Positions 19,997 through 35,017 of a stretch of 64,000 nucleotides of DNA are shown in pieces. Position 1 is the stretch's first letter; each line of letters starts with the position of its first letter. The translations under genes were made by a program, and so were the position numbers. Source of the DNA: Fusobacterium varium (lineage in GTDB: Bacteria > Fusobacteriota > Fusobacteriia > Fusobacteriales > Fusobacteriaceae); NCBI GenBank assembly GCA_900637705.1, contig LR134390.1:2294001-2358000 (forward strand), in the 5' to 3' direction. The notes beneath the pieces were generated by a model that worked only from the letters and a program-made list of their open reading frames with translations, was not told the DNA's origin and searched no databases.

Positions 19997-22900
19997 TTAT
20001 TTTACACTCAATAATTCTAATATATCTTTTTTAGTCATAGAAATTATATTTTCTTGTTTTTCATCTAGTATTTCTCTTATTAATTTTTCTTTTTCATCTT
20101 TTATTATATTTATCTTTTCCTCAATTGTTCCTTTAGCTATCATTTTAAAAACATTAACATTCTTTGTTTGTCCCATTCTATAAGCTCTGTCAGTAGCTTG
20201 ATTTTCAACAGAAGAATTCCACCAAGGATCAAAATGTATTACAGTATCTGCTCCAGTAAGATTAAGTCCACTTCCTCCAGCTTTCAAAGAAATGATAAAT
20301 ATATCCCCTTCTCCTGAATTAAATCTTTCTACCAATTCCATTCGGTGCTCAGATTTTGTTTTTCCATCTAAATAGAGATAAGTCATGTCCTTAGGTATAT
20401 TCTCTTTAATTATACTTAACATTTCAGTAAATTGTGAAAATAAAAGAACCCTGTGTCCACCACTTTTACACTCTTCTAAAAGTTCTAATAAAGCTTCTAA
20501 TTTAGAACTTTCTCCATCATAATCAGCTAAAAAGAGTTTTGGATGATTACACAGCTGTCTTAATCTTGTAAGCCAAACAAATATTTCCAATGAATTATTT
20601 TTTTCACGAAGTTCTTTTTTACATTTTTCCAAATAAGCTAAATACAACTTCTTTTCATCTTCTCCTAATTCAACTATAATATCAGTTTCAATTTTATCAG
20701 GAAGTTCCTTAAGTACTTCTCTTTTAAGCCTTCTTAGAATAAATGGAGCTATCATCTCTCTTAAATCTTTTAAATTTTCATTATATTTATTTAAAAATTT
20801 TGTATGTTTTCCCAAATACCCTGGAAAAACAAAGTCAAAAATACTCCATAGTTCTAAAGTATTATTTTCTATTGGAGTTCCTGTCAATGCTATTCTTATG
20901 CCTGCTTTTATTTTTTTTACTGAATCAGCAGTTCTAGACAGAAAGTTCTTTATATTTTGAGCTTCATCAATAATTAATGTGTCAATAAAAATATCTTTAT
21001 AGAACTCTTCATCTTTGACTAAAAAGCCATATGTACTTATAAGGATATCTCCAGACTTAGAATTTTCAACAATTTCTTTTCTTATTGGCGCTTTTCCTTC
21101 CACTATATTTACATTAAGTTCTGGAGCAAACTTTTTAAATTCATTTCTCCAGTTATACATAAGAGTTTTAGGTACTATAATAAGTTTCAAACCTGTTTTT
21201 TCTTTTATTGCTGAAAGATAAGATATTATCTGTAAAGTCTTTCCAAGTCCCATATCATCTGCTAATATTCCTCCCATTCCTAATTTTCTTAGAAATAAAA
21301 GCCATTGTACTCCTATTTTTTGATATTCTCTTAACATTGGAAAATTTTTATTTATACTTATATCATCACTTTTTTCTTTACATTGCATAATTTTTTCAAA
21401 TATATTCTCTAAATCCTTTGCTAATTCTATATTATTTAATTTTTCTAAAAAATTTGACAGAAAATATCCATAACTTTTCTCCCTTTTTATTACTCCAGAA
21501 AGTATCTCAGCTTTTTTAGCATCAGATTTAGCTAATAATTCTGAAAATTTTTGCATATTTTCATTTTCTCCTAAGAGAAGTATTTCTCCATTTTTTAAAA
21601 TATAATATTTTTTTTCTTCCTTAATCGATTTCAACACTTCATAAACTTCCTCATTTGAAATTCCATCTACTTCAAAATTTATTTCAAGAAGGTCAGTGAC
21701 TTTAGTTGAAACTCGATAGTTTAATGTTTCATATTTTTTTATTTTAAAATCTTTCGAGTAAAATATTTTATATTTTTCACTTAACTTTGGAATTTTCTCT
21801 TTTATAAAACTGTACACTTCTTCATGGTTATTTAAAATATATGTCCCATTATTTTCTAAAAAATGATATTCTCCTAGTATATCAAGAATATTTTTTTTAT
21901 CTATCCTATTATTTCCAATAATAATTTTTTCTATATCTTTCTTTTCTTTTCCATCAAACATTTTCTTTATATTTAGAGTTATCCCTTCTCTCTTATATAA
22001 ATCTATGAATATTACCGTTTCTATAACTTTAGGTTCATATATTTTTTCTTTCAGTTTTTTGTCTAAATTTATTTTGGCAAACTTTGATATTTTTTCTACA
22101 ATATCTTTCATACTTACTTCATTTAAACTTATATTCCAATCCTTTAACTCCATTATACTTTCAAATTCCCTAAATTCTTCTAATTTTTCTGAAGATACTT
22201 TATATATTTTTGTATCAATAATATCTCTATATCCAATATAACTATTTCCAATACTCATATATTTTACATAATCAGGAGTAGTTATATGTATTTTTTCATT
22301 ATAATAATCTAAATTAACTTTTATAAGTTTTTCCAATCTTTCTTCTTTTATATTTATTTTTTCATTTTTTTCCAATATATTGAAAAGTCTTTCAGCAGAT
22401 CTCTTCCTTTTAAGTATCTCTTCAATAGAAAAATTTGAAGACCTAAAACTAAAAAATTCATACATTTCTTTTAAATAGTCTATAAATTCTTTCTCCCAGC
22501 CACTGAAATAATCTCTTTTAGGTTCATATGTATATTTTACTCCAAATTTCATTGGATTTTCTTCATAATTACTTAAAAATTCTGAAATTTTACTATTAAG
22601 TTTATATTTTTTCTTATCTACTAAAAATGATATATCCATATTAAGATTAGATTTGTTTGTTTCATTTTTATTTGCCATGCATAAGTCAACTTCTAAAATA
22701 ATTCTATTTTTTTCAATTTCTTTCTTTTTAAAATACTCTATTATCTTCCTTTCTTCAGAGTCCTCCAACTCTTCAAGAAAATTATTCCCTTCAAATGCCA
22801 GAGCTACTACATGCTTACATATGCTTTTATTTAAACCAAAATAAACACAATTGCAATTAAAATCTATAAGCTCATTCCTTGTAAATTTTATTTTAGGTGT

Positions 22901-23065
22901 ATATACCTCACCAATACCATTAACTCTTCCTTCCATTTCAAACATATTTTTAGTTTTTTCTATTTGATAATCAAAGAGCTGCCCATTATCATAACAATCT
23001 CTTCCTTTATCAAGTACTTTTTCATTCTTTATTTTTCTGAACACATTTGATAAAAATCTTGCCAC
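19997..23065 (-). CDS. SNF2-family helicase with N-terminal SWIM zinc finger
   Basis: 1022 residues. A SWIM-type zinc finger (CNCVYFGLNKSICKHVVAL) is near residue 70. A long central region (about 110-560) matches SNF2-associated bacterial domains. The helicase core follows: GGILADDMGLGKTLQ (Walker A, about 600), LIIDEAQNIKN (about 700), then a helicase C domain with SLKAGGSGLNLTGAD and QATDRAYRMGQT. Such proteins are DNA-translocating ATPases of the RapA/HepA-SNF2 group. Their substrates in bacteria are mostly unknown. It lies next to the SWIM/MoxR/VWA operon, a suggestive but unproven link. Confidence 0.92.
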   Translation of the reverse strand: MARFLSNVFRKIKNEKVLDKGRDCYDNGQLFDYQIEKTKNMFEMEGRVNGIGEVYTPKIKFTRNELIDFNCNCVYFGLNKSICKHVVALAFEGNNFLEELEDSEERKIIEYFKKKEIEKNRIILEVDLCMANKNETNKSNLNMDISFLVDKKKYKLNSKISEFLSNYEENPMKFGVKYTYEPKRDYFSGWEKEFIDYLKEMYEFFSFRSSNFSIEEILKRKRSAERLFNILEKNEKINIKEERLEKLIKVNLDYYNEKIHITTPDYVKYMSIGNSYIGYRDIIDTKIYKVSSEKLEEFREFESIMELKDWNISLNEVSMKDIVEKISKFAKINLDKKLKEKIYEPKVIETVIFIDLYKREGITLNIKKMFDGKEKKDIEKIIIGNNRIDKKNILDILGEYHFLENNGTYILNNHEEVYSFIKEKIPKLSEKYKIFYSKDFKIKKYETLNYRVSTKVTDLLEINFEVDGISNEEVYEVLKSIKEEKKYYILKNGEILLLGENENMQKFSELLAKSDAKKAEILSGVIKREKSYGYFLSNFLEKLNNIELAKDLENIFEKIMQCKEKSDDISINKNFPMLREYQKIGVQWLLFLRKLGMGGILADDMGLGKTLQIISYLSAIKEKTGLKLIIVPKTLMYNWRNEFKKFAPELNVNIVEGKAPIRKEIVENSKSGDILISTYGFLVKDEEFYKDIFIDTLIIDEAQNIKNFLSRTADSVKKIKAGIRIALTGTPIENNTLELWSIFDFVFPGYLGKHTKFLNKYNENLKDLREMIAPFILRRLKREVLKELPDKIETDIIVELGEDEKKLYLAYLEKCKKELREKNNSLEIFVWLTRLRQLCNHPKLFLADYDGESSKLEALLELLEECKSGGHRVLLFSQFTEMLSIIKENIPKDMTYLYLDGKTKSEHRMELVERFNSGEGDIFIISLKAGGSGLNLTGADTVIHFDPWWNSSVENQATDRAYRMGQTKNVNVFKMIAKGTIEEKINIIKDEKEKLIREILDEKQENIISMTKKDILELLSVK

Positions 23066-24216: not shown

Positions 24217-24507
24217 CTACAAAATCATATCTTTTGCATTTTGAATATAAAATTCTAATTTACAAAATACATCAGCAGCTGCTCTTATATCATATTCAAA
24301 ACTGTTTCTTCTTTGATTAAGTTTATCTCTAAGTTCCCTCATAAGTTCTTCAGCTTTGCTCATTCCAGTTTTTTGGCATAATTTTTCTATTTGTTCAAGT
24401 TTTTCAAAAGTTGCAGGTTGCACCATATGAAAACCACTTAAAAAAATATCATTCATAATATTTTCTGTATCATTTATTATTGTTTCTAAAATATTATTAT
24501 CTTTCAT
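24217..24507 (-). CDS. Small helical protein at the end of the MoxR/VWA operon
   Basis: 96 residues, all-helical by composition. It has a heptad-like centre (FEKLEQIEKLCQKTGMSKAE) and ends in AAADVFCKLEFYIQNAKDMI. It starts 12 bp after the SWIM-protein stop, with its own SD (AGGTG). No known domain is recognised. Its position suggests an accessory or adaptor subunit of the SWIM/VWA/AAA+ system. Confidence 0.68.
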   Translation of the reverse strand: MKDNNILETIINDTENIMNDIFLSGFHMVQPATFEKLEQIEKLCQKTGMSKAEELMRELRDKLNQRRNSFEYDIRAAADVFCKLEFYIQNAKDMIL

Positions 24508-24519
24508 TCTTTCACCTGC

Positions 24520-26211
24520 TTAAAAAAATATATTTTTTATCTTTCCATCTTGTATCCCACTTAAAAATTTTCCATTCATTATTCCATTTTTTTCAGTAAT
24601 ACTTCCAAGAATATATTCAAAATATGACCCAGTCTTATTTTTTTCAAAATATTTTATAGCGTTTTCTGATACAGAATTATATTTTATATCAAACACTATA
24701 GTATTTCCATTTGAATCTAATACATCAAATTTAAGTTTCTGTTCTATTTTATCATATTCTATATTTTTTATTTCCTCTGCTTTTATTAAAAAAATATTTT
24801 TAGTAGCTGAATATGGTTCAAAATATCTAAATTTATGTTTTCTCAATTCAGTTATGATAAGTGAATAATCTGAAACAGCCAATTCATTTATATCTTCTTC
24901 AGTTGTTTTTCCCTTTATATTACATATTGTAGATTTTGCAGAAGATATCTTTCCTGTAGAAAGTTTTGCATCTTTCAAAATCATTTTTGACACTGATACC
25001 TCTTTAAAAGAAAGCTCATTTGACCATACCTGCCCCATATTGTACAGAGTACTTATTTGTGAACTATTTTCATATGGTCTAAGAGTACTCATTGACAAAA
25101 TACTATTTATATCTTTACAGTAAAAATATGCTGTTATAAGAAGATCATTTCTTTTTGTAATGCCTCCAGAAGCTCCTAATCCTATTAATTCAATGTTATC
25201 AAGGTTAAACTTTTCCTCCTGCCTCTGTCCTACCAGCATTATTTTTTTTCTATTATCTTTCACTATGAGCAGAGCAGATGTTCTGTTGTAAATAGAACAT
25301 AATATGTGCATCAGCCTTTTATTAGAAAAAGATATATTTTTAGAAAAATAAAAGCCAAGTTCACTTGAAAGATTTTTTAATTCATCTGCTGATGCAAAAA
25401 GTTTTATTCCATAAATCTGTATATAAAATTTTTCTGCCTGACTTATCTCATTCCCTGTCAACCCTGATATCCCACGATCAAATATTGAACTTATAAAAAT
25501 ATGAAGATTTTCTATAATCTCTTTTTCCTTTTCTCCTATTTCTATTGTTTCATATTCTGTATCTTCCTCTGTTATTTTTCCTTCCTTTATCAAGTAAGAT
25601 ATCAGAGCATATATTTTATGTGAACATATCCCCTTCTCCTTACAAGAACACATTGCATTTTCAATAGATTTTTCTTTAGGAAAATATACTTTAGCATTTT
25701 GACTGGCAATGGTTACAGTAAGCATATCTCCATATTCAAAAATCGCTTCATTTCTTATAAAAATTGAATTTATAACAGAATTATAGGTTTTCTTCCCTAC
25801 AATTTCCAGTATCTTATCCCCTGTGAGTTTTTTTAATTCTTCATAGAAATTTATTTCATCAATTTTTTCCTCTTTATCTTCTTCTATCTCTTTTTCTTCT
25901 TCATTTTGATTACTGTCATAAAATTCTTTCAAATAAAGAAGTGCCATTACAATATGTTTGCAGATACTTGAAGCTGGACATGTACATCTGCTTTTCTGTA
26001 TATTCACATTTAATTCCACAACTACATCTTCTATTTTTACTTCTATAATTCCTGTATCCTTTACTGACAATAGAATATTTTCTCTGGCTTTTTCCAGGTC
26101 TTTTATAGAACGTTTATATATCCCTTTATTTGAAATACTAACTATAAACTCTTCATTTATGAAAGGGAGAAAAGGCTTTATTTCATTTATAACACTATTT
26201 TTGCTATCCAT
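24520..26211 (-). CDS. SWIM zinc-finger protein (YehQ-like)
   Basis: 563 residues. Two SWIM-type zinc sites: CTCPASSICKHIVMA near residue 80 and CSCKEKGICSHKIYAL near residue 188, separated by an acidic linker (EEEKEIEEDKEEK). The SWIM motif CxCx(n)CxH binds nucleic acid or protein. The C-terminal half (about 240-560) has no recognised fold. The arrangement next to VWA, DUF5682 and MoxR proteins matches E. coli yehQ. The start overlaps the VWA gene by 25 bp, which implies coupled translation. Confidence 0.82.
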   Translation of the reverse strand: MDSKNSVINEIKPFLPFINEEFIVSISNKGIYKRSIKDLEKARENILLSVKDTGIIEVKIEDVVVELNVNIQKSRCTCPASSICKHIVMALLYLKEFYDSNQNEEEKEIEEDKEEKIDEINFYEELKKLTGDKILEIVGKKTYNSVINSIFIRNEAIFEYGDMLTVTIASQNAKVYFPKEKSIENAMCSCKEKGICSHKIYALISYLIKEGKITEEDTEYETIEIGEKEKEIIENLHIFISSIFDRGISGLTGNEISQAEKFYIQIYGIKLFASADELKNLSSELGFYFSKNISFSNKRLMHILCSIYNRTSALLIVKDNRKKIMLVGQRQEEKFNLDNIELIGLGASGGITKRNDLLITAYFYCKDINSILSMSTLRPYENSSQISTLYNMGQVWSNELSFKEVSVSKMILKDAKLSTGKISSAKSTICNIKGKTTEEDINELAVSDYSLIITELRKHKFRYFEPYSATKNIFLIKAEEIKNIEYDKIEQKLKFDVLDSNGNTIVFDIKYNSVSENAIKYFEKNKTGSYFEYILGSITEKNGIMNGKFLSGIQDGKIKNIFF

Positions 26212-27296
26212 TGTGCCAACTCCTTTGGTGTTATAGCTGCTACATCTGCACCTAAATTTGCCATTTTTTGAGCAGCATTTTTGTCATAACTTCCTTGTGC
26301 ACTATAATCCAAAGCAGGAAGTACAAACATTCTTGCACCTGTTTCTATGATATCAAAAACCCTCCTGTACATTTGTCTATAATCATAGCCGTCATAAAGA
26401 TCACTTACTAGCACAACTATTGTTTTTTGAGGCTGAGTTATCTTAGAAGCAGCATAATCAAGAGCTTTTGATATATCTGTTCCTCCTCCCAGTTGCACAC
26501 TTAAAAGTGTTTCTACTGGGTCGCTCACATAATCAGTTAGATCCACCACACTTGTATCAAACACTATCAGTTTTGTATCTATCATTGATAGTTTAGAAAA
26601 TATTCCAGCCATAACAGCACTATAGATTACAGAAGATACCATACTTCCACTTTGATCTACTACTATTATTATATGATATTCATTTTGTTTTTTTATACGA
26701 GAAGAAAAATACAATCTTGAAGGGACAAGAACTTTTCTCTCTGCATCATAATTTTTTAAATTTCTTCTTACAGTTTTTTTAAAATCAAAGTTTCTCATTG
26801 TACGAAGTACACCACTTTTATATGGATTTTTCTTTCCATGAAAAGCTTCTACTATCTCTTTTCTTAATTGCTCCTCAATCTCTTTAACCACTTCTCCTAT
26901 TATGTTCCTAGCTGTTTGAAGTACTTGAGGACTCATCATTTTTTTAAATGCCAATATATTTTTTAACAATTCCATATCAGGCTGCATCTGTTTAAGTATC
27001 TTTTCATCAGTAAGAAGCTCTGTCAGATTATATTTAGAAATTGCCTGCTTTTGCATTATTTCCACTGTTTCTGCTGGAAAAAGCTCCCTTACTTTTCCTA
27101 TCCATTCTGGAACAGTAAGGCTTGAAGCTCCTCTCCCACCTTCTTTACGTATTCCCTGTTCTTCTGAATACTCCCTTGAATAAAGAAAATCAAGAACAGA
27201 ATCCATAGTGGCATATTGAGGGTCCAGGCTCATATTTTCCTGAGCAAATTCCCCAAGAACAAGCCTCCACTTATTAAGTGTTTTTCTATCTTCCAT
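26187..27296 (-). CDS. VWA-domain protein (CoxE/YehP-like) with intact MIDAS
   Basis: 369 residues. The C-terminal von Willebrand A domain has a full metal-ion-dependent adhesion site: DQSGSM (about 213), GGGTDISKAL, and VLVSDLYDG. The N-terminal ~180 residues are helical (about 20 % charged) and match the DUF/CoxE-type partner of MoxR ATPases. In known MoxR-VWA pairs the VWA protein brings a target to the AAA+ ring for remodelling or metal insertion. It overlaps the SWIM gene by 25 bp and the DUF5682 gene by 11 bp. Resembles E. coli yehP. Confidence 0.87.
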   Translation of the reverse strand: MEDRKTLNKWRLVLGEFAQENMSLDPQYATMDSVLDFLYSREYSEEQGIRKEGGRGASSLTVPEWIGKVRELFPAETVEIMQKQAISKYNLTELLTDEKILKQMQPDMELLKNILAFKKMMSPQVLQTARNIIGEVVKEIEEQLRKEIVEAFHGKKNPYKSGVLRTMRNFDFKKTVRRNLKNYDAERKVLVPSRLYFSSRIKKQNEYHIIIVVDQSGSMVSSVIYSAVMAGIFSKLSMIDTKLIVFDTSVVDLTDYVSDPVETLLSVQLGGGTDISKALDYAASKITQPQKTIVVLVSDLYDGYDYRQMYRRVFDIIETGARMFVLPALDYSAQGSYDKNAAQKMANLGADVAAITPKELAQWIAKIVL

Positions 27297-29730
27297 TTTC
27301 TTCCCCCTTTATCAAAAGCCATTCATCCAGTTTTTCAGAACAATATCTATCTATATCTGCTGCTCTTTCCATCTGCTTTTGATCAAAAACATCTCCATAT
27401 AGTAATTCTTCTCCTGACATATTATAAAATGAAGATACCTGTTTAGCTATTTTATCAGTTTCAAAGGGAAGAAAATATGTAAAGGCATATCTCAAATCTG
27501 GAAGTATTTCCAAAAATAAATCTCCATCAGTTTCTTTCAAGATTTCATCTAAAGAGTGAAGCATTCTGTCATCTACAAAAACTATGTCCTTAGCTATTTT
27601 AAAAAATCCCTTCAAAAAAGATGCTGACATTTTTTTTGAAATATCAGATCCATTAAGATAAGAATTAAATTTAACCATAGCCTCCTCTAAGGATATTCTG
27701 CCCTTTTTAAAAAGGACTGCACTTCCTGCTCCAGAAAGGGCAGTATTGGCCGAGTTGTTCTCATATATAGAAAACATACTTTGAATAAAGGCTTCTTCAT
27801 CTTCTCTATTCTGACTATCTATAAAATAAGTATACAGAAGCTTTATTCCATCACAAATATTATCTTCATCTTCTTTTTTAGAACTTATAACAGTATAAAT
27901 CAATGTAAGCATACGATTTAAATTTAACTCTATCACTTTATCCAGCAATGGTATATCTATTCCAGTAAAACTTGCATTATATGTTTTTACTTCACAAAGA
28001 TTTTTAAAGCAGTCAGATACACTTAAAAAATCCATATCATTACCTATTATATCTATTAATTTTTCAAAAATAATACCATATACACTGTTTAATCCCATAC
28101 GATTTGCCTGCAAAAGTTTTTCTGAAAGTTCTCTGGCATTACTGTGTTCAGCCGATATCCCTTTTATTATGAGAGAAAGACAGGCTTCCTCTACTGTTCC
28201 CCCATATGCAGAATTTGTAATAAGAGCCACCTGTACTCCCGGAAAGAAACGATATTCCCAAGTTTCTCTAAGAAGTATCCTTCCCTTTCCAGTATTTGAA
28301 TCCTGCCCTTTCAAATAATTACAAAAATCTGTTTTTAAAAAGTTCATTTGATGAAAAAATCTGCTTTTCTCTCTATGGCTTTCATTATTAAATATATCTA
28401 ATTTTGTTTCTTTTTTCATACTTACTGTTGTGGATATTTTAAATTTTTTACATTTCACAAAAAAATCATTCACCAAAGGAGGAACTCCACAATCTGGGTC
28501 TATACTTCCCATTTCCATTCCAGTAAGAAGCCTGTAGAGATTTTTTAATGCCGGCTGATGATATGAATTTATTTCCCCCTTTACAAAAGATGCCTTAACT
28601 CCATCTATCAGTTCAAATACTCCACATTCTTTCTTTTCTCTAAGTTCACCTAAACCTCTAGCCATATAGTATGACTGCATTTCATCAGAAATTAAAAGAG
28701 GCTGTTTTTTTCTTACTGCCCCTGCTGTATTGATAATAAAACGCAATACTGATTCCTCAAAAGGTCTTTTCCTATTTTTATTTATATTCTCCCATACCTT
28801 TTGATAAAAAAATGGAAATACCATTCCTGATTCATATCCTGAATTTCTATCAGATTCTTCAAAAGAATAAGGCATAAGGTAACTTGGGGAATCTTCCTCC
28901 TTTATATTTTCTATTTTAAATAAAGGAAGTTTTTCTGCTGTAATAAGATTTACAAGCTCTATTGTATGTATTCCACCAGTTACCACTAAAACTTTTTTAT
29001 ATTTTTTCATAGCTTCTCTAATATTTTCAGCCATATAATACTCTCTGATTATATCCCCATGATAAATTAATTCATCTTGAGGAGTATTCTCTCTGCTGTA
29101 ATAACAATAGTAAAATAAGCTTTTTAAAAAACTTTCAGTTTCTGTATGAAATCCCTCTATTTCAAAAAGCATCTCCCATAGTTCATTAAAATTTTTACAG
29201 CCCATTTTCTCTACAAGCATTTTATAATAACTGCTCTGTAAAAATACTCTGTCATCTTCATAATTCTCTACATTTTTTTGCTCTGGGTTGGGTGTATTTA
29301 AAAGTTTTTCCCCATAACTAAGATCAATAAATTCACAATGTATCCCTTTCTCTGCTCCTTTTCTCAGTGCAGTCAGTTCAGGGGAGTAGTCAAGAAATGG
29401 ATAAAAAGCTCTGTATTTTCCTTTTTCTTCAGTTATTTTTCCTAATTTATCATCATAGCTCAGATATATGCAGAAAGGTGTTTTTGTTTTATCTGATACT
29501 GCATATTCTATTAAATGTCCTGCATTTTTTGGTCCTTCTATCAATATAGCTTCTGGCTGATATTCTTTTATCACTTTTTCCAAATGAAAAGAACAGACTG
29601 GACTATGATGTCTTACTGGAAACAATATGAAATTTGAAGATAAATCATAACTTTTTTTGAAAAGTTCATCTATTTTTTTTATTTCTTCCTTTATTTCAGG
29701 TTGTTTCTCGCCTCGTAATAATCTATCCAT
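27286..29730 (-). CDS. DUF5682 protein (YehM-like)
   Basis: 814 residues. The N-terminal motif FPVRHHSPVCSFHLEK (about 37-52), then ILIEGPKNAGH (about 62-72) and VVTGGIHTIEL (about 247-257), are characteristic of DUF5682. The HH...EG...GGxH pattern resembles the TraB/EreA type of fold, but any enzymatic role is inference. The rest is helical and repeat-like. It is overlapped 40 bp by the AAA+ gene upstream. Its constant association with MoxR, VWA and SWIM genes (E. coli yehM) suggests a core subunit. The function is not established. Confidence 0.82.
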   Translation of the reverse strand: MDRLLRGEKQPEIKEEIKKIDELFKKSYDLSSNFILFPVRHHSPVCSFHLEKVIKEYQPEAILIEGPKNAGHLIEYAVSDKTKTPFCIYLSYDDKLGKITEEKGKYRAFYPFLDYSPELTALRKGAEKGIHCEFIDLSYGEKLLNTPNPEQKNVENYEDDRVFLQSSYYKMLVEKMGCKNFNELWEMLFEIEGFHTETESFLKSLFYYCYYSRENTPQDELIYHGDIIREYYMAENIREAMKKYKKVLVVTGGIHTIELVNLITAEKLPLFKIENIKEEDSPSYLMPYSFEESDRNSGYESGMVFPFFYQKVWENINKNRKRPFEESVLRFIINTAGAVRKKQPLLISDEMQSYYMARGLGELREKKECGVFELIDGVKASFVKGEINSYHQPALKNLYRLLTGMEMGSIDPDCGVPPLVNDFFVKCKKFKISTTVSMKKETKLDIFNNESHREKSRFFHQMNFLKTDFCNYLKGQDSNTGKGRILLRETWEYRFFPGVQVALITNSAYGGTVEEACLSLIIKGISAEHSNARELSEKLLQANRMGLNSVYGIIFEKLIDIIGNDMDFLSVSDCFKNLCEVKTYNASFTGIDIPLLDKVIELNLNRMLTLIYTVISSKKEDEDNICDGIKLLYTYFIDSQNREDEEAFIQSMFSIYENNSANTALSGAGSAVLFKKGRISLEEAMVKFNSYLNGSDISKKMSASFLKGFFKIAKDIVFVDDRMLHSLDEILKETDGDLFLEILPDLRYAFTYFLPFETDKIAKQVSSFYNMSGEELLYGDVFDQKQMERAADIDRYCSEKLDEWLLIKGEENGR

Positions 29731-30803
29731 AATGACCCCTCTTTTTCTGCTCTTTTTTTCACAACAGTTCCAAAATAATTTTTAAGTTTTGATAAATCAT
29801 CTCTATTTTCCTTGATTACTGCTCCTTTTATATTTTGAACAAGTTTGTCAGCAGTTATTTTTCCATCACTGTAATAATATGAATCAATAGCAGTTTGGAA
29901 ATACACTGATACTGCTTCTGCTGTACTCATAACTGATGATGGTATATCTACTTTTATATTTTCATAAGTTATACCTTCTCTCAATTCTCTGAAAGTCAAA
30001 GCAAGTACTTCAATAACATTATGATCTATTTTCATTTCTATATTAGCCTCATTGAACATTTTTTCACATTCCTGTTCTATTATTTTAGCCTCTATAGTTA
30101 CACTGCTCACTGGCAGAACTGTTTCAAAATTAAATCTTCTTTTCAAAGCACTGCTCATCTCATTGATACCCTTATCTCTGGTATTAGCAGTAGCTATCAC
30201 ATTAAATCCCGGTCTTGCATACAGTACTGGTTCTTCTGCAAACTCTGGAATATTCAACATTTTATCACTCATAACACTTATCATGCTGTCCTGCATTTCC
30301 AATGGACATCTGGTTATTTCTTCAAAACGAGTTATTATTCCTTCTTTCATTCCAATATATAAAGGTGCTGGAACAAGAGCTTCCCTTACAGGCCCTTTTG
30401 CTAAAAGCATTGCATAGTTCCACGAATATTTTATCATATCTTCAGTAGTCCCTGCTGTTCCCTGAATAGTATTTGTACTTGTTCCACAGATAGCAGCAGA
30501 TAAAAGTTCACTCAACATAGTTTTTGCTGTTCCGGGATCTCCCACAAGCATAAGTCCTCTATTTCCAGCAAGAGTGATTATACTTCTTTCTACAAGAGAA
30601 TCATCTCCATAGAATTTTTTAGTTATTTTTACTTTCTTCCCGTTATATTCTACAGCCTTGTCACTTCCAAGGATAAATGTTCTCACTGCTTTGGGGGACA
30701 TAAGCCAATTTTCTGGTTTTTTCCCAGTATCTGTATTTCTCAATGCCTCTAATTCCTCAGCATATTTCATCTCCATAGTAGGTTTTAAAATTTTTACTTC
30801 CAC
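29691..30803 (-). CDS. MoxR-type AAA+ ATPase (YehL-like)
   Basis: 370 residues. Walker A GDPGTAKT near residue 90; Walker B region IITRFEEITRC; sensor 1 NVIATANTRD and arginine-finger region SSALKRRFNFE follow. This is the MoxR/AAA_5 clade. Such ATPases act as ring-shaped chaperones with VWA partners. The start is GTG at 30803, eight bases after GGGAGG, two bases after the upstream gene's stop. The end overlaps the DUF5682 gene by 40 bp. Corresponds to yehL of E. coli. Confidence 0.9.
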   Translation of the reverse strand: MEVKILKPTMEMKYAEELEALRNTDTGKKPENWLMSPKAVRTFILGSDKAVEYNGKKVKITKKFYGDDSLVERSIITLAGNRGLMLVGDPGTAKTMLSELLSAAICGTSTNTIQGTAGTTEDMIKYSWNYAMLLAKGPVREALVPAPLYIGMKEGIITRFEEITRCPLEMQDSMISVMSDKMLNIPEFAEEPVLYARPGFNVIATANTRDKGINEMSSALKRRFNFETVLPVSSVTIEAKIIEQECEKMFNEANIEMKIDHNVIEVLALTFRELREGITYENIKVDIPSSVMSTAEAVSVYFQTAIDSYYYSDGKITADKLVQNIKGAVIKENRDDLSKLKNYFGTVVKKRAEKEGSLWIDYYEARNNLK

Positions 30804-30805
30804 AA

Positions 30806-33800
30806 CTATTCCTCCCTGTTTTCAATAGCTTTTTCTGTTATCATGTTTCCTGCAAGATATGCAAGGCTAATAAGTTTTTTAGGTACTTTTCTAAGAACTA
30901 TTTCACTATTGCTTTCTCTTGAAATAAAACTTATTTTAAGTATGCTGATAATTGTACTATAATCCCCTGGATAGAAATTATTAGTAGATATAAACATCTT
31001 TATATTACTTGATTCATCTATAAAAGTACAGCCACAGCATTCTCCATATTCAGCAAATTCCATATTAAAGCCAAGTTTATTTGCTGCACTTTTAAAAGTT
31101 GAAGCATAAATTTTCTTTGTTTTAAATTCTGTTATATCTTTTTCCTCAAGCTCATCATCTTTTAAAGTATATACTGGTATATTCAATTGATCTACTGGCT
31201 GTACTATTTCATAATCTTCTAATTGTTCTGTCCATGCTGCCAGCTCTTCCTCATCTATATCAGCAGGGTGTAATGGAAGTATATATGTTCCATTTTCTAA
31301 TTCATACTCTTCTTCATCTACTGTATTAAAAGTTCCATCTTCCATATATCTGAAAGTTTTTATAATATTTCCTTTATCATCTACCTCTTCCCATACAAGT
31401 TTTGTTGCAAAGCTGTTCATTATAGGATTTTCTATAAGCAGCTCCTTCCATTTATCTATACTCCATTTTCTTCCTATTATAACTGCTTTAGCCATCCTTA
31501 ACTTTTGAGATTCTACAACAATTTTTATCTGTTTCTTTATATTTTTTAGTTCCTCTTTACATTCTGCTGCCATATCTTCATTGTCATTATTCTTAGCTGA
31601 TGCCTTTGGAAGAGATTTTATTTGCTTTCCAGTATTATCAAAAAGTGTTATTTCCATCTTATCATCTAATACTGCTTTAAATTCCCTCTCTCCATAACTG
31701 AATATCCTAGTTCTGTCTTTTCCGAATCCTAAATCAGGAACTATTATATCATCTAATTCATCTCTAGACATTCCCATAGCTTCTGCTGCTATATCCATAG
31801 CTTCAAGAGCAGCTCTTTTTACTCTTTTATTTTTATGTTTTCTTGACATACTATCCACTGTAAGAAGTGCCATTTTGCTTCCATTCATACACAAAGATTG
31901 AATAGCAAAGGTTGCAAGTCCAGGTTTGCTGTTATCTGCCCAAAAGTCTATTTGTTTTTTAATCATAGGTATTTGAGCTTCACCAGCTGTAAGAGCCAAA
32001 GGCAGAAGCAGATTTCTGTATTTTGTAGTTGAACCTTCAGCAATCCACATATCAAAAATATTTTTCATTAAAAGCCTTAAATCATAAATATTTACAATTT
32101 CCTGTATTTTTTTGCATCCCTTAATTATATACAGATCTTTCAAAACTATATATTCAGACACAAAATATTTCATTACTTTTTCTGAAATTTTTTCCTCTGA
32201 ATCCTTTATTCTCACATTTGCATAATCTATTTCTTTAGCATAAGGAGTATTTTTATCATTAGTTTTAGTGTATAGATTTTCTATATACTCTGTTATTTCA
32301 TTAATATTCTGCATTGCTTTCAAATCCTTTTCTATTTTATCATTATCCCATATTCTTACAAGACGCATAGCAGTATCAGCAGTTATTTTGCTTTTAGCTC
32401 CAGCTAATTCCTCTACTTTAGAACGTACTTCATTTTCTTTAGATTTAAGCATATCTTCCACCATGCTTGTTATACTTTTTATTTTCTTTTCAAATACATT
32501 AGTAAGTTCCACATAATCAAATCCATTATTTTCCTTGTAAAGAATATTGATAAAGCTTTTTAAATAATCTATTTCAAAAGAATTATTTTTCAATAGTTCA
32601 TATATCTCAGCTTCATATTTATGAGCAAATTCCAGAAATTCTTTTTTTTCTGCTTCTTCTTCCCTAAATCTATAGTCAAGATATCCTTGACATATGTCTT
32701 CAAATGAAATTCCCAATTTTTCATAAAGTCTTGCATAAATATTTTCATTTTTTGCAGGACATACACACTTATAATTTATTATAAAATGGAAAAGATATCT
32801 TATATATCCTTTCATTTTAAATACTACTCCCACAGCATTCCTTGCCACTGTAGAATATTCTATTAAAGAAAGAGCTGAAACATTTATTTTATTAGCTTTT
32901 ATTCTATGTTTATATGCATTTCCATTTTCAGATATTTTTATTCCATCCAGCACAGCCTTTTCATTTCTCAAGAATTCAAAATCTTCCATTCCAACATCAG
33001 GAAATTCATATTCATATACTTCTTTGTTTGTATACATTTCACTGCATGATTTTATAAGTATATCCTCAATTTTATCTAGATACTCTTTTTTCTCTGCTCC
33101 ATCAATGTAGTTATTTTTTATAAGAAGGCTGAGAAGTATTCCTCCCATAACGTCTTCTTCATCTATTTCTCTTTTCATTATAGACTTAACATACTCTGGT
33201 GACGACTTCATACTTTCTTCTATTACTTTATAAAAATATCTTTCATTATATCTATAACCATTTGAAATACATTCTAAACAAAAGTCTAATTTATATTTAT
33301 CAGAAAGTTTTAATCCTTCTATATTTTTCATTGTCTGTTCATCATTATTAGGTATATAAAGAAAAGACACAGGTTCTGCCATTGCAGCTATCCTTACCCC
33401 TTGAAAAATAATATTTGAAGCCATTTTTACCTCTCTTATTATTTTATTAATTAAAATAACTTCATGCATTTCAGAAATAAAAAACAATTTTATCTGATCT
33501 AATTTATTATAGTACTTTTCTATTTGAACATCTTTTATATCATTTTCCAAAATACCTTTTACAGTTTTATCTTTTAATCTCTTCTTTAAAATGCTATAAA
33601 AAAATCTTTCCAGCTTTTCTACTATATTTTCTTTTTTTCCAAAGAAAATATTACCTATTTTTTCTATTGGACTGCTTTCATTTTCCTTTTTTAATTTTGC
33701 TATAAGTAGCATTCCTGCTGCAAAAGCTGCATTTCCGTTTACTTTATCATATTCATTTATATATTCATCAGCAATGTCCTTATAATTTTCAATAAATTTA

Positions 33801-34216
33801 TTTACCAGTTCTTTTTCTGTCTGCCACCAATATCTTGTAGCATACAAAAGCATTTTTTGAAAATCCTCCTTTATAAATGCTTTGCTGAATCCCAATTTTT
33901 TATAAAGACTATACTTTCCAACAAAAACTTGAAACTGAGTACTCAATTTATCTGGACATTCTTTATACAACAACTCTGTATATCTTTTTAGTACTTCCCC
34001 ATCCTCATTATCTATAAAATTTTTATTTTCATCAAAACACCCTAACTGGTCAAAACCATATGCCTGATATATAGAAATTTTCTTTCTCAAATCATTCCCT
34101 GATGGAGCTGTATTTGTTTCCCCCAATATATAACTTTCTAACTGATCTCTCAGTTGAGGTTCGTTATAAGAATATACATTTCTCATAATAATTTCTGCTG
34201 CTTCTTTTCTTGCCAT
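30806..34216 (-). CDS. DUF4132/MolR-like giant protein (YehI-like), first gene of the MoxR/VWA operon
   Basis: 1136 residues, no signal peptide or membrane helix. The C-terminal third (about 920-1040) fits DUF4132: the WSIDKWKELLIENPIMNSFA block, then LVWEEVDDKGN and LHPADIDEEELAAW. The remainder is helical, possibly HEAT-like, around 730-830 (ALTAGEAQIPMIKKQ, ALEAMDIAAEAMG). DUF4132 proteins occur with MoxR/VWA genes (E. coli yehI/molR region); their role is unknown. SD GGGGG precedes the ATG at 34216. It is preceded by 800 bp without a gene, so it is likely the head of the operon. Confidence 0.84.
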   Translation of the reverse strand: MARKEAAEIIMRNVYSYNEPQLRDQLESYILGETNTAPSGNDLRKKISIYQAYGFDQLGCFDENKNFIDNEDGEVLKRYTELLYKECPDKLSTQFQVFVGKYSLYKKLGFSKAFIKEDFQKMLLYATRYWWQTEKELVNKFIENYKDIADEYINEYDKVNGNAAFAAGMLLIAKLKKENESSPIEKIGNIFFGKKENIVEKLERFFYSILKKRLKDKTVKGILENDIKDVQIEKYYNKLDQIKLFFISEMHEVILINKIIREVKMASNIIFQGVRIAAMAEPVSFLYIPNNDEQTMKNIEGLKLSDKYKLDFCLECISNGYRYNERYFYKVIEESMKSSPEYVKSIMKREIDEEDVMGGILLSLLIKNNYIDGAEKKEYLDKIEDILIKSCSEMYTNKEVYEYEFPDVGMEDFEFLRNEKAVLDGIKISENGNAYKHRIKANKINVSALSLIEYSTVARNAVGVVFKMKGYIRYLFHFIINYKCVCPAKNENIYARLYEKLGISFEDICQGYLDYRFREEEAEKKEFLEFAHKYEAEIYELLKNNSFEIDYLKSFINILYKENNGFDYVELTNVFEKKIKSITSMVEDMLKSKENEVRSKVEELAGAKSKITADTAMRLVRIWDNDKIEKDLKAMQNINEITEYIENLYTKTNDKNTPYAKEIDYANVRIKDSEEKISEKVMKYFVSEYIVLKDLYIIKGCKKIQEIVNIYDLRLLMKNIFDMWIAEGSTTKYRNLLLPLALTAGEAQIPMIKKQIDFWADNSKPGLATFAIQSLCMNGSKMALLTVDSMSRKHKNKRVKRAALEAMDIAAEAMGMSRDELDDIIVPDLGFGKDRTRIFSYGEREFKAVLDDKMEITLFDNTGKQIKSLPKASAKNNDNEDMAAECKEELKNIKKQIKIVVESQKLRMAKAVIIGRKWSIDKWKELLIENPIMNSFATKLVWEEVDDKGNIIKTFRYMEDGTFNTVDEEEYELENGTYILPLHPADIDEEELAAWTEQLEDYEIVQPVDQLNIPVYTLKDDELEEKDITEFKTKKIYASTFKSAANKLGFNMEFAEYGECCGCTFIDESSNIKMFISTNNFYPGDYSTIISILKISFISRESNSEIVLRKVPKKLISLAYLAGNMITEKAIENREE

Positions 34217-34574
34217 GTTTATCCCCCTATGTTTTATAATAGTTTTATCACTTTACCAAAATAACCAAGTTTTAATTTTCTTGTTTTTATTATACTTCAT
34301 AATTTTAAATAAATAAACATTCTCTTATATATATTTACAGATAATTTTTTTGCAACTATAAATAAACAGTTATTAATATTCTTTTATCCAACATTTCTTC
34401 AACTACCTGCACCTTCAGACTTTACAAAATAAAAAAGAAGCATTTATAAAGAAAGAACATATTTTAAAAATTTTTATAGAAATATCTGTTGTTTAATTTC
34501 CATTTTTAAATATTTTTCTATCTTAATTAACAAGCTTCTTCAAATTAAAATATTTAATTTAAATATAATGTCAT

Positions 34575-34745
34575 CAATAAAATAAAGGAACTTATAATAG
34601 TGGTAGTCTTGCTCCCCCACAGCTTCCTATTATGAGGTCTAATCATCTCCCATATCTTTTACAGTAACCCTAGGTTCACCCCCCAGAAAAAATAACACCT
34701 CTTTCATATTTCTGTAGTTTCTCTATATTTTGCTCTCCTTAAAAA
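34575..34745 (-). ncRNA. Candidate structured RNA in the 800-bp gap upstream of the DUF4132 operon
   Basis: In this AT-rich gap one ~100-base stretch is G-rich on the minus strand: CTGGGGGGTGAACCTAGGG, then GGAAGCTGTGGGGGAGC. Its 5' side (AAGGAGAG near 34742) can pair with TTCCTT at the 3' side (near 34587). A 7-bp stem ATAATAG/CTATTAT (34594-34600 / 34627-34633) with an inner GTGG/CCAC is visible, and GAGGT/ACCTC encloses the middle. The layout of a long closing stem around bulges recalls 6S RNA, but I cannot confirm that family. A 22-codon frame (34639-34707) overlaps it without a good SD. The rest of 34217-35017 shows nothing else. Confidence 0.45.
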
Positions 34746-34971
34746 TTATTCTGTCTATATTCAATTAAATCTTAACTAAATTTTATCTCATTAATACTTG
34801 CTCTACTATTTAAATTTCAACATAAAAAGAGAGGTGCTTAATACATCTCAGACACTCAATTAATTGTTCATATTTTTAGAAACTCTAAATTTCACTGTTT
34901 TTTTAGGGTGTATATTCATACATTCTCTTGTTAAAGGGAACTTTTAATTTTTTTATAGTTATTTTTAACTA

Positions 34972-35002
34972 ATAAAAAAGCCCACTGATTAAATCAGTGA
35001 GC
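34972..35002 (-). terminator. Terminator of fprA
   Basis: Minus strand GCTCACTGATTTAATCAGTGGGC (10-bp stem) followed by T6, 16 bp after the fprA stop. Confidence 0.88.
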
Positions 35003-35017
35003 TTTTTTATTATTAAA

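What the first reader, a model, noticed from the sequence alone, without database searches (positions are those of the whole stretch)
24217..34216. A coupled DUF4132 - MoxR - DUF5682 - VWA - SWIM operon of unknown function
Five genes run 34216 to 24520 with no gaps larger than 2 bp and overlaps of 40, 11 and 25 bp, so one machine is likely. All key residues look intact: MoxR Walker A GDPGTAKT, VWA MIDAS DQSGSM / GGGTD / SD, and two SWIM zinc sites. The set matches E. coli yehI, yehL, yehM, yehP and yehQ, which to my knowledge have no settled role. MoxR-VWA pairs elsewhere act as chaperones, and related operons have been proposed to be biological-conflict systems. Extra small genes (96 residues, two paralogous two-helix membrane proteins, DUF2085) follow here and could be effectors or membrane anchors. 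That part is inference.
Basis: partly seen in the sequence, partly recalled or inferred. Interest (0 to 1): 0.75.

Follow-up and report, generated by a model that had tools for sequence, protein, structure and literature searches.

The report
Conserved ATPase-hydrolase operon, variable recognition arm
This is the Fusobacterium version of a widespread but unexplained bacterial gene cluster (E. coli yehI-L-M-P-Q); its conserved parts look like an ATP-driven motor coupled to a predicted enzyme of the Tiki/TraB family, and in E. coli its largest part keeps duplicating and changing, as recognition proteins do.

Summary
In detail: five coupled genes (34216-24520, minus strand), collinear with E. coli yehI-L-M-P-Q. 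Linkage is strong: 48 of 59 well-flanked related loci carry all five, and the components' distance matrices correlate at r = 0.88-0.97.
New here:
(1) DUF5682 (YehM) carries an N-terminal Tiki/TraB/ChaN-superfamily domain. Profile match to TraB: E = 6.6e-7, with controls at or below 1%. ChaN, HopBA1 and BcR135 match the model. Histidines, glutamates and arginines at the expected positions are kept across five named phyla.
(2) The 96-residue gene is not an effector. It is the detached C-terminal domain of the SWIM protein, fused in 31 loci and separate in 32.
(3) The membrane proteins and DUF2085 do not recur outside the genus.
(4) A second operon type has DUF5691 in place of DUF4132.
(5) In seven E. 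coli strains the DUF4132 neighbour of yehI is duplicated and about four times as divergent as metG, mainly in its N-terminal solenoid; four strains carry broken components.
The cluster sits in 97.7% of E. coli genomes and is not enriched near defence genes against a matched control. Best reading: an ATP-driven remodelling hydrolase with DUF4132 as a diversifying recognition arm. A role in conflict is plausible but untested.

The parts
30806..34216 (-). DUF4132 protein, 1136 aa (YehI-like): long alpha-helical HEAT-type solenoid (about 1-825) plus C-terminal alpha/beta domain (about 830-1136) that holds the Pfam DUF4132 core (863-1050)
   Evidence: Pfam; AlphaFold2 mean pLDDT 76, C-terminal part about 90; solenoid matches only, importin/exportin type
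29691..30803 (-). MoxR AAA+ ATPase, 370 aa, YehL type; Walker A GDPGTAKT, Walker B-like FEE, sensor NTRD, Arg-rich KRRF
   Evidence: Pfam AAA_5; 44% to YehL; alignment
27286..29730 (-). DUF5682 protein, 814 aa (YehM-like): N-terminal Tiki/TraB-superfamily hydrolase-like domain plus C-terminal helical repeat
   Evidence: Pfam; AlphaFold2 mean pLDDT 88; ChaN, HopBA1, BcR135 matches at the N-terminus; TraB profile match
28861..29649 (-). Tiki-superfamily domain of the DUF5682 protein (residues 28-290) with R40-H41, E65, R229-E230 and G252-x-x-H255
   Evidence: invariance in 57 sequences and across both operon types
26187..27296 (-). VWA protein, 369 aa, CoxE family (YehP-like), complete MIDAS
   Evidence: Pfam VWA_CoxE 4.2e-46; 42% to YehP; alignment
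24520..26211 (-). SWIM zinc-finger protein, 563 aa (YehQ-like), two CxCx6CxH motifs
   Evidence: Pfam SWIM; sequence; YehQ match E 3.6e-16
24217..24507 (-). Separate C-terminal domain of the SWIM protein, 96 aa
   Evidence: matches positions 588-672 of 688 of the SWIM-protein profile; fused in 31 loci, separate in 32, no shuffled hits
34217..35017 (.). About 800-bp intergenic region upstream of the operon with AGGGGG ribosome-binding site before the DUF4132 ATG; presumed promoter region
   Evidence: sequence; promoter scan no better than shuffles; no Rfam match

Best explanation
An ATP-driven substrate-remodelling hydrolase. MoxR (YehL) would form the ATPase ring and VWA (YehP) would couple it to a client through its MIDAS site. 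DUF5682 (YehM) would hydrolyse or cleave the client with a Tiki/TraB-type active site mounted on a helical scaffold. DUF4132 (a long solenoid) together with the SWIM protein and its 96-aa tail would recognise the client. DUF4132 is the replaceable arm: duplicated and diversified in E. coli, replaced by DUF5691 in other phyla. The variable arm suggests clients that change over time, so a resident conflict or surveillance role is my first choice of biology, narrowly ahead of housekeeping maturation. Shown: operon linkage, intact motifs, the Tiki fold assignment, the SWIM-tail fission, DUF4132 variability. Inferred: complex formation, catalysis, client recognition, biological role.
For: 48 of 59 well-flanked loci carry all five genes in several gene orders; component distance matrices correlate at r = 0.88-0.97. 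DUF5682 N-terminus: TraB/PrgY profile match over 211 columns, probability 92%, E 6.6e-7, against at most 1.0% for reversed, column-shuffled and unrelated profiles; ChaN Z 8.8, HopBA1 Z 8.0, BcR135 Z 7.0, all at the N-terminal part of the model, proteins named as TIKI-superfamily members in PMC6254334. Active-site positions invariant in 57 Bacillota-type sequences and kept in Deinococcota, Pseudomonadota, Bacteroidota, Fusobacteriota and Bacillota. DUF4132 diversification: mean 11.4% nucleotide divergence against 2.8% for metG, 12-19% through much of the N-terminal two thirds and about 4-5% in much of the C-terminal part; an extra paralogue (44% identical) in two of seven strains. Tandem DUF4132 also in Iodobacter and Clostridia.
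Against: No interaction, activity or phenotype is known. The first Glu of the 2His/2Glu Tiki site (PMC6254334) is replaced by Arg40, so the protein may bind a cofactor (as ChaN does) or be inactive. DUF4132 is not unusually divergent among the four Fusobacterium species (86-92%, like SWIM). The E. coli strains were taken along a similarity ranking, so the frequency of broken copies is not an estimate. Whole-model Foldseek matches for DUF5682 were all weak (E above 0.01).
Confidence: 0.45

Rival explanations
1. A housekeeping maturation chaperone in the manner of RavA-ViaA, NorQ-NorD or CoxD-CoxE: MoxR-VWA remodels one dedicated host complex or inserts a cofactor, and DUF5682 acts as a binding or processing factor.
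For: The VWA protein is of the CoxE family; MoxR-VWA pairs with known function act this way (PMC3893208; PMC7159879); the locus is at one chromosomal position in 97.7% of E. coli genomes; ChaN-like folds can bind haem.
Against: Patchy across species (5 of 249 Bacillota, 11 of 98 Fusobacteriota); duplicated, fast-changing DUF4132 and several broken copies within E. coli; no recurrent client gene next to the operon.
Confidence: 0.3
2. A mobile anti-phage defence system of the MoxR-VWA ternary type described by Kaur et al. 2020.
For: Same MoxR-VWA core; P-loop of the GxxxTAK[S/T] type, which that paper reports for two of its systems; plasmid copies beside restriction-modification or recombinase genes; patchy across species.
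Against: No VMAP, iSTAND, FtsH or beta-propeller partner and no exchangeable effectors; no PADLOC match for the five core components; roughly 4-5% of flanking ORFs match defence families against about 4% in a matched control from the same contigs; nearly fixed in E. coli.
Confidence: 0.15
3. A DNA-damage or molybdate response module, with WGR-DUF4132 (MolR) as the input.
For: DRA0166 (DUF4132) rises when DdrO is depleted, and MolR is said to belong to the LexA regulon (PMC8533742); a one-mismatch LexA-type site lies about 10 bp upstream of yehF; WGR domain on the E. coli paralogue.
Against: That study saw no change in molybdate genes; the LexA-type matches in the region are not above chance overall (13 against 8.8 expected); the window operon has no WGR domain.
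Confidence: 0.1

Closest known systems
E. coli yehI-yehL-yehM-yehP-yehQ cluster (YehL subfamily of MoxR ATPases)
   Same: All five proteins homologous, same order
   Different: E. coli has one or two further tandem DUF4132 genes, WGR on one of them, a small gene yehK, and no separate SWIM tail gene
RavA-ViaA (E. coli) and CoxD-CoxE / NorQ-NorD MoxR-VWA pairs
   Same: MoxR AAA+ plus VWA partner in one operon; VWA of the CoxE family here
   Different: To my knowledge those pairs lack DUF5682, SWIM and DUF4132 partners, and their clients are known metalloenzymes or respiratory complexes
MoxR-vWA ternary conflict systems (Kaur et al. 2020, PMC7159879)
   Same: MoxR-VWA core with a third large component; unusual P-loop GxxxTAK[S/T]
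   Different: Third component is a Tiki-type protein, not VMAP, iSTAND, FtsH or beta-propeller; no effector shuffling seen
Tiki/TraB/ChaN/EreA enzyme superfamily
   Same: Fold, strand-end motifs (xRH, E, RE..MA, GGxH) and profile similarity of the DUF5682 N-terminus
   Different: Fused to a long helical repeat and tied to an AAA+ operon; first Glu of the 2His/2Glu site is Arg
DUF5691-type operon (SWIM-DUF5691-MoxR-DUF5682-VWA) of Deinococcus, Methylosinus and Hymenobacter
   Same: Same MoxR, DUF5682, VWA and SWIM parts (in Hymenobacter SWIM-like and DUF5691 stretches lie in one protein)
   Different: DUF5691 in place of DUF4132; gene order differs. Leptotrichia has the same layout with an unassigned 365-638-aa protein

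Membership tests
YehL-type operon (yehI-L-M-P-Q) | Five homologous genes, linked | tested here: met
MoxR AAA+ / VWA pair | MoxR-type AAA+ with Walker A/B beside a VWA with intact MIDAS | tested here: met
MoxR AAA+ / VWA pair | Physical MoxR-VWA complex and ATPase activity | not testable with these tools
   needs biochemistry
Tiki/TraB/ChaN superfamily (DUF5682 N-terminus) | Common fold | tested here: met
   ChaN Z 8.8 (rmsd 4.8, 164 aligned), HopBA1 Z 8.0, BcR135 Z 7.0, on the N-terminal region; the last two lie near the level of chance matches, so the sequence profile below carries much of the weight
Tiki/TraB/ChaN superfamily (DUF5682 N-terminus) | Sequence-profile similarity to a known member family | tested here: met
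   TraB/PrgY alignment, probability 92%, E 6.6e-7, controls at or below 1.0%
Tiki/TraB/ChaN superfamily (DUF5682 N-terminus) | 2His/2Glu catalytic set | tested here: inconclusive
   two His and one Glu at matching places, first Glu replaced by Arg (motif from PMC6254334)
MoxR-vWA ternary conflict systems (Kaur et al. 2020) | Third component VMAP, iSTAND, FtsH or beta-propeller protein | tested here: not met
   Pfam scans of all core and adjacent genes
MoxR-vWA ternary conflict systems (Kaur et al. 2020) | Exchangeable effector genes | tested here: not met
   no recurrent or variable effector besides DUF4132 copies in 80 loci
Known anti-phage defence systems | Match of the components to PADLOC models | tested here: not met
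   none of the five, and only a marginal PtuA match for the 96-aa protein (E 0.0098)

The most novel reading that the evidence does not exclude
A new class of bacterial surveillance machine: an AAA+ MoxR-VWA motor feeding clients to a Tiki-fold protease, with DUF4132 solenoids as diversifying, duplicated receptors, resident in the chromosome of nearly every E. coli.
Probability: 0.3. Interest if true: 0.85.

Novelty: new variant of a known kind. Interest (0 to 1): 0.6.

Why it matters
A cluster found at one chromosomal position in nearly all sequenced E. coli has no assigned function. Assigning DUF5682 to the Tiki superfamily gives it a candidate enzyme and named residues to mutate, and the variability of DUF4132 says which part probably reads the target. 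It also suggests why laboratory work may have missed it: K-12 carries a frameshifted DUF4132 gene and an early stop in YehQ, and other strains are broken elsewhere, so tests in K-12 alone may show nothing.

Tried and rejected
Defence-island association: flanking ORFs gave convincing defence hits (Wadjet JetA/B/D, BREX BrxA/BrxB, AbiE), and a first control from Bacilli gave few; a matched control from distant parts of the same contigs gave a similar share (two methyltransferases, AbiEi/AbiEii, MzaE in 125 ORFs), so the association was dropped. Counts are approximate, because the tool lists families and not members. Small genes as effectors: rejected for the 96-aa gene; no recurrence for the others. 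Phage origin: no hit in viral contigs; one unverified 'phage' contig carries MoxR-DUF5682-VWA and is probably bacterial. PDB sequence search with DUF5682, MoxR and DUF4132 gave no close homologue. My first TraB alignment used wrong strands for some loci and was redone. A search for the ChaN family in Fusobacteriota found none. Fold searches did not list a match for the DUF4132 C-terminal domain alone.
Full report
OBSERVATION. The five ORFs, their 2-bp gap and their overlaps of 40, 11 and 25 bp are exactly as reported. Pfam supports DUF4132, AAA_5 (MoxR), DUF5682, VWA_CoxE and SWIM. The key motifs are intact. Each protein pairs with E. coli YehI, YehL, YehM, YehP and YehQ in the same order at 25, 44, 23, 42 and 20% identity. 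Three congeners carry the same operon.

LINKAGE. A scan of reference genomes with the MoxR alignment returned 80 loci from Clostridia, Bacilli and a few Treponema, Bacteroidota and Brachyspira bins. Of 59 loci with enough flank, 57 have DUF5682, 54 VWA, 52 SWIM, 50 DUF4132 and 48 all five. DUF4132 may stand first, last or in the middle, so linkage is kept although order changes. Distance matrices of the five proteins correlate at r = 0.88-0.97 in 42 loci; mean identity falls from MoxR (70%) through VWA (57%), DUF5682 (42%) and DUF4132 (32%) to SWIM (30%). Shared species history contributes to these correlations. No other gene recurs next to the operon: the frequent neighbours are ordinary regulators and transporters. 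The membrane proteins, DUF2085 and the Snf2 helicase downstream are therefore not part of the core; Snf2 and similar small genes recur in the three congeners only.

THE SMALL GENE. The 96-residue protein matches positions 588-672 of the 688-position profile of longer SWIM proteins. Thirty-one SWIM ORFs of 595-869 aa carry this domain fused at the C-terminus, and 32 loci have it as a separate gene; no shuffled control matched. It is a split domain of a core component.

THE PREDICTED ENZYME. In 57 DUF5682 sequences the residues P38, R40, H41, H42, S43, P44, C46, E65, G66, P67, E118, D136, E183, E186, E190, R213, R229, E230, G252 and H255 are invariant. The pattern resembles TraB/Tiki proteins: His after strand 1, Glu after strand 2, RE..MA before, and GGxH after, a late strand. 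Three tests agree. The AlphaFold2 model (pLDDT 88) matches ChaN (Z 8.8), HopBA1 (Z 8.0) and BcR135 (Z 7.0) over its N-terminal region; these proteins are named as TIKI superfamily in PMC6254334. A mitochondrial complex IV subunit of Tetrahymena ranked first (Z 11.5), and I do not know its family. A profile comparison with 29 TraB/PrgY proteins gives probability 92% and E 6.6e-7 over 211 columns, while reversed, C-terminal, VWA, MoxR and 30 column-shuffled profiles give at most 1.0%. Pfam itself hints at Cofac_haem_bdg (E 0.033). Across both operon types and five named phyla xRH, E, RE and GxxH remain, while RHHSP varies to RHFSP, RHLSP or RHHGP. Of the 2His/2Glu set, the first Glu is Arg here, so hydrolysis is a prediction. 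The rest of the protein is a helical repeat.

THE RECOGNITION ARM. DUF4132 is modelled as a long helical solenoid (N-terminus less certain) followed by a confident alpha/beta domain. Fold matches are to importin/exportin-type solenoids only, with low scores. In Deinococcus, Methylosinus and Hymenobacter a DUF5691 protein takes its place. Leptotrichia and one Bacillota genome have the same layout with a 365-638-aa protein that Pfam does not name; in the Bacillota case it has HEAT repeats. Rhizobia and Iodobacter keep DUF4132.

E. COLI POPULATION. yehL-yehQ matches 5301 of 5426 complete genomes, 5162 at 80% coverage or more, with a median of one place per genome, nearly always chromosomal; yehI is similar (5283). 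The second, WGR-bearing DUF4132 gene covers 80% in only 3988. In seven strains, mean nucleotide divergence is 2.8% for metG, 3.2% yehL, 3.7% yehP, 4.0% yehM, 5.1% yehI, 5.3% yehQ and 11.4% for the DUF4132 gene next to yehI. In that gene it is 12-19% through much of the first half to two thirds and mostly 3.5-7% in the last third. Two strains have a third, 44%-identical copy, and in one of them the second copy is shortened, with similarity only over its C-terminal half. Four of the seven have broken components: K-12 (DUF4132 and YehQ), NCTC86 (yehM), 2014C-3011 (both DUF4132 genes, SWIM) and Nord1 (yehL, yehM). The strains were taken along a similarity ranking, so this is a lead and not a rate.

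PATCHINESS AND DEFENCE. DUF5682 is found in 5 of 249 Bacillota genomes over the cut-off and 11 of 98 Fusobacteriota. PADLOC has no model for the five core components. In 313 flanking ORFs I saw Wadjet, BREX, Abi and candidate genes, but distant regions of the same contigs gave a similar share. So the operon is not specially placed in defence islands.

MECHANISM AND ROLE. Shown by sequence: one linked set, intact ATPase and MIDAS motifs, a Tiki-type domain, a split SWIM tail and a diversifying DUF4132. Inferred: MoxR ring, VWA adaptor, DUF5682 as enzyme, DUF4132 or DUF5691 and SWIM as client recognition. Known MoxR-VWA pairs remodel or mature dedicated protein complexes (PMC3893208; PMC7159879). 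Variable, duplicated recognition arms over a conserved motor fit changing clients, hence my lean to conflict or surveillance; near-fixation in E. coli and the lack of defence clustering keep the maturation rival close. The Deinococcus report of DUF4132 induction on DdrO depletion (PMC8533742) and the LexA-like site near yehF keep a DNA-damage link open.

LITERATURE. In 5.39 million open papers, 'DUF5682' or 'DUF4132' occurs in three, none with a function. yeh genes appear incidentally, as in butanol tolerance, copper evolution and a deuterium-adapted strain. Subscription papers were not searched, so an earlier Tiki assignment or phenotype cannot be excluded.

Noticed in passing
window 19997-23065: Snf2-family helicase with SNF2_assoc domain just downstream, also next to the operon in three congeners; NCBIfam's best match is a pilus-expression-regulating Snf2 helicase, below cut-off.
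   Followed up: partly
G000:C1:404232-404663 (L002, L024): A second, stand-alone DUF4132 protein (about 1460 aa) in the same genome without the MoxR, VWA, DUF5682 or SWIM partners.
   Followed up: no
L015 6450-6465: LexA-like site with one mismatch about 10 bp upstream of yehF in E. coli K-12; such matches are not above chance in the region overall.
   Followed up: partly
G102:C1:153819-154877 and G372:C11:53963-55012: Two Lachnospiraceae-type genomes hold a second, distant YehL-type MoxR (45-46%) besides the main copy, perhaps the DUF5691-type operon.
   Followed up: no
L040, L041, L043 just after MoxR: A UvrD-like helicase ORF of about 1100-1190 aa (cut short in L043) follows MoxR directly in three loci, in two of them ahead of DUF5682: a repeated insertion or a variant.
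   Followed up: no
L021, L022, L023 against the window: The upstream flank differs: the three congeners share 576-580-, 201- and 284-293-aa genes before DUF4132, whereas the window has a beta-lactamase/flavodoxin-type and an acyl-CoA dehydrogenase gene.
   Followed up: no
window 34217-35017: An 800-bp stretch without a long ORF or Rfam match upstream of the operon.
   Followed up: partly
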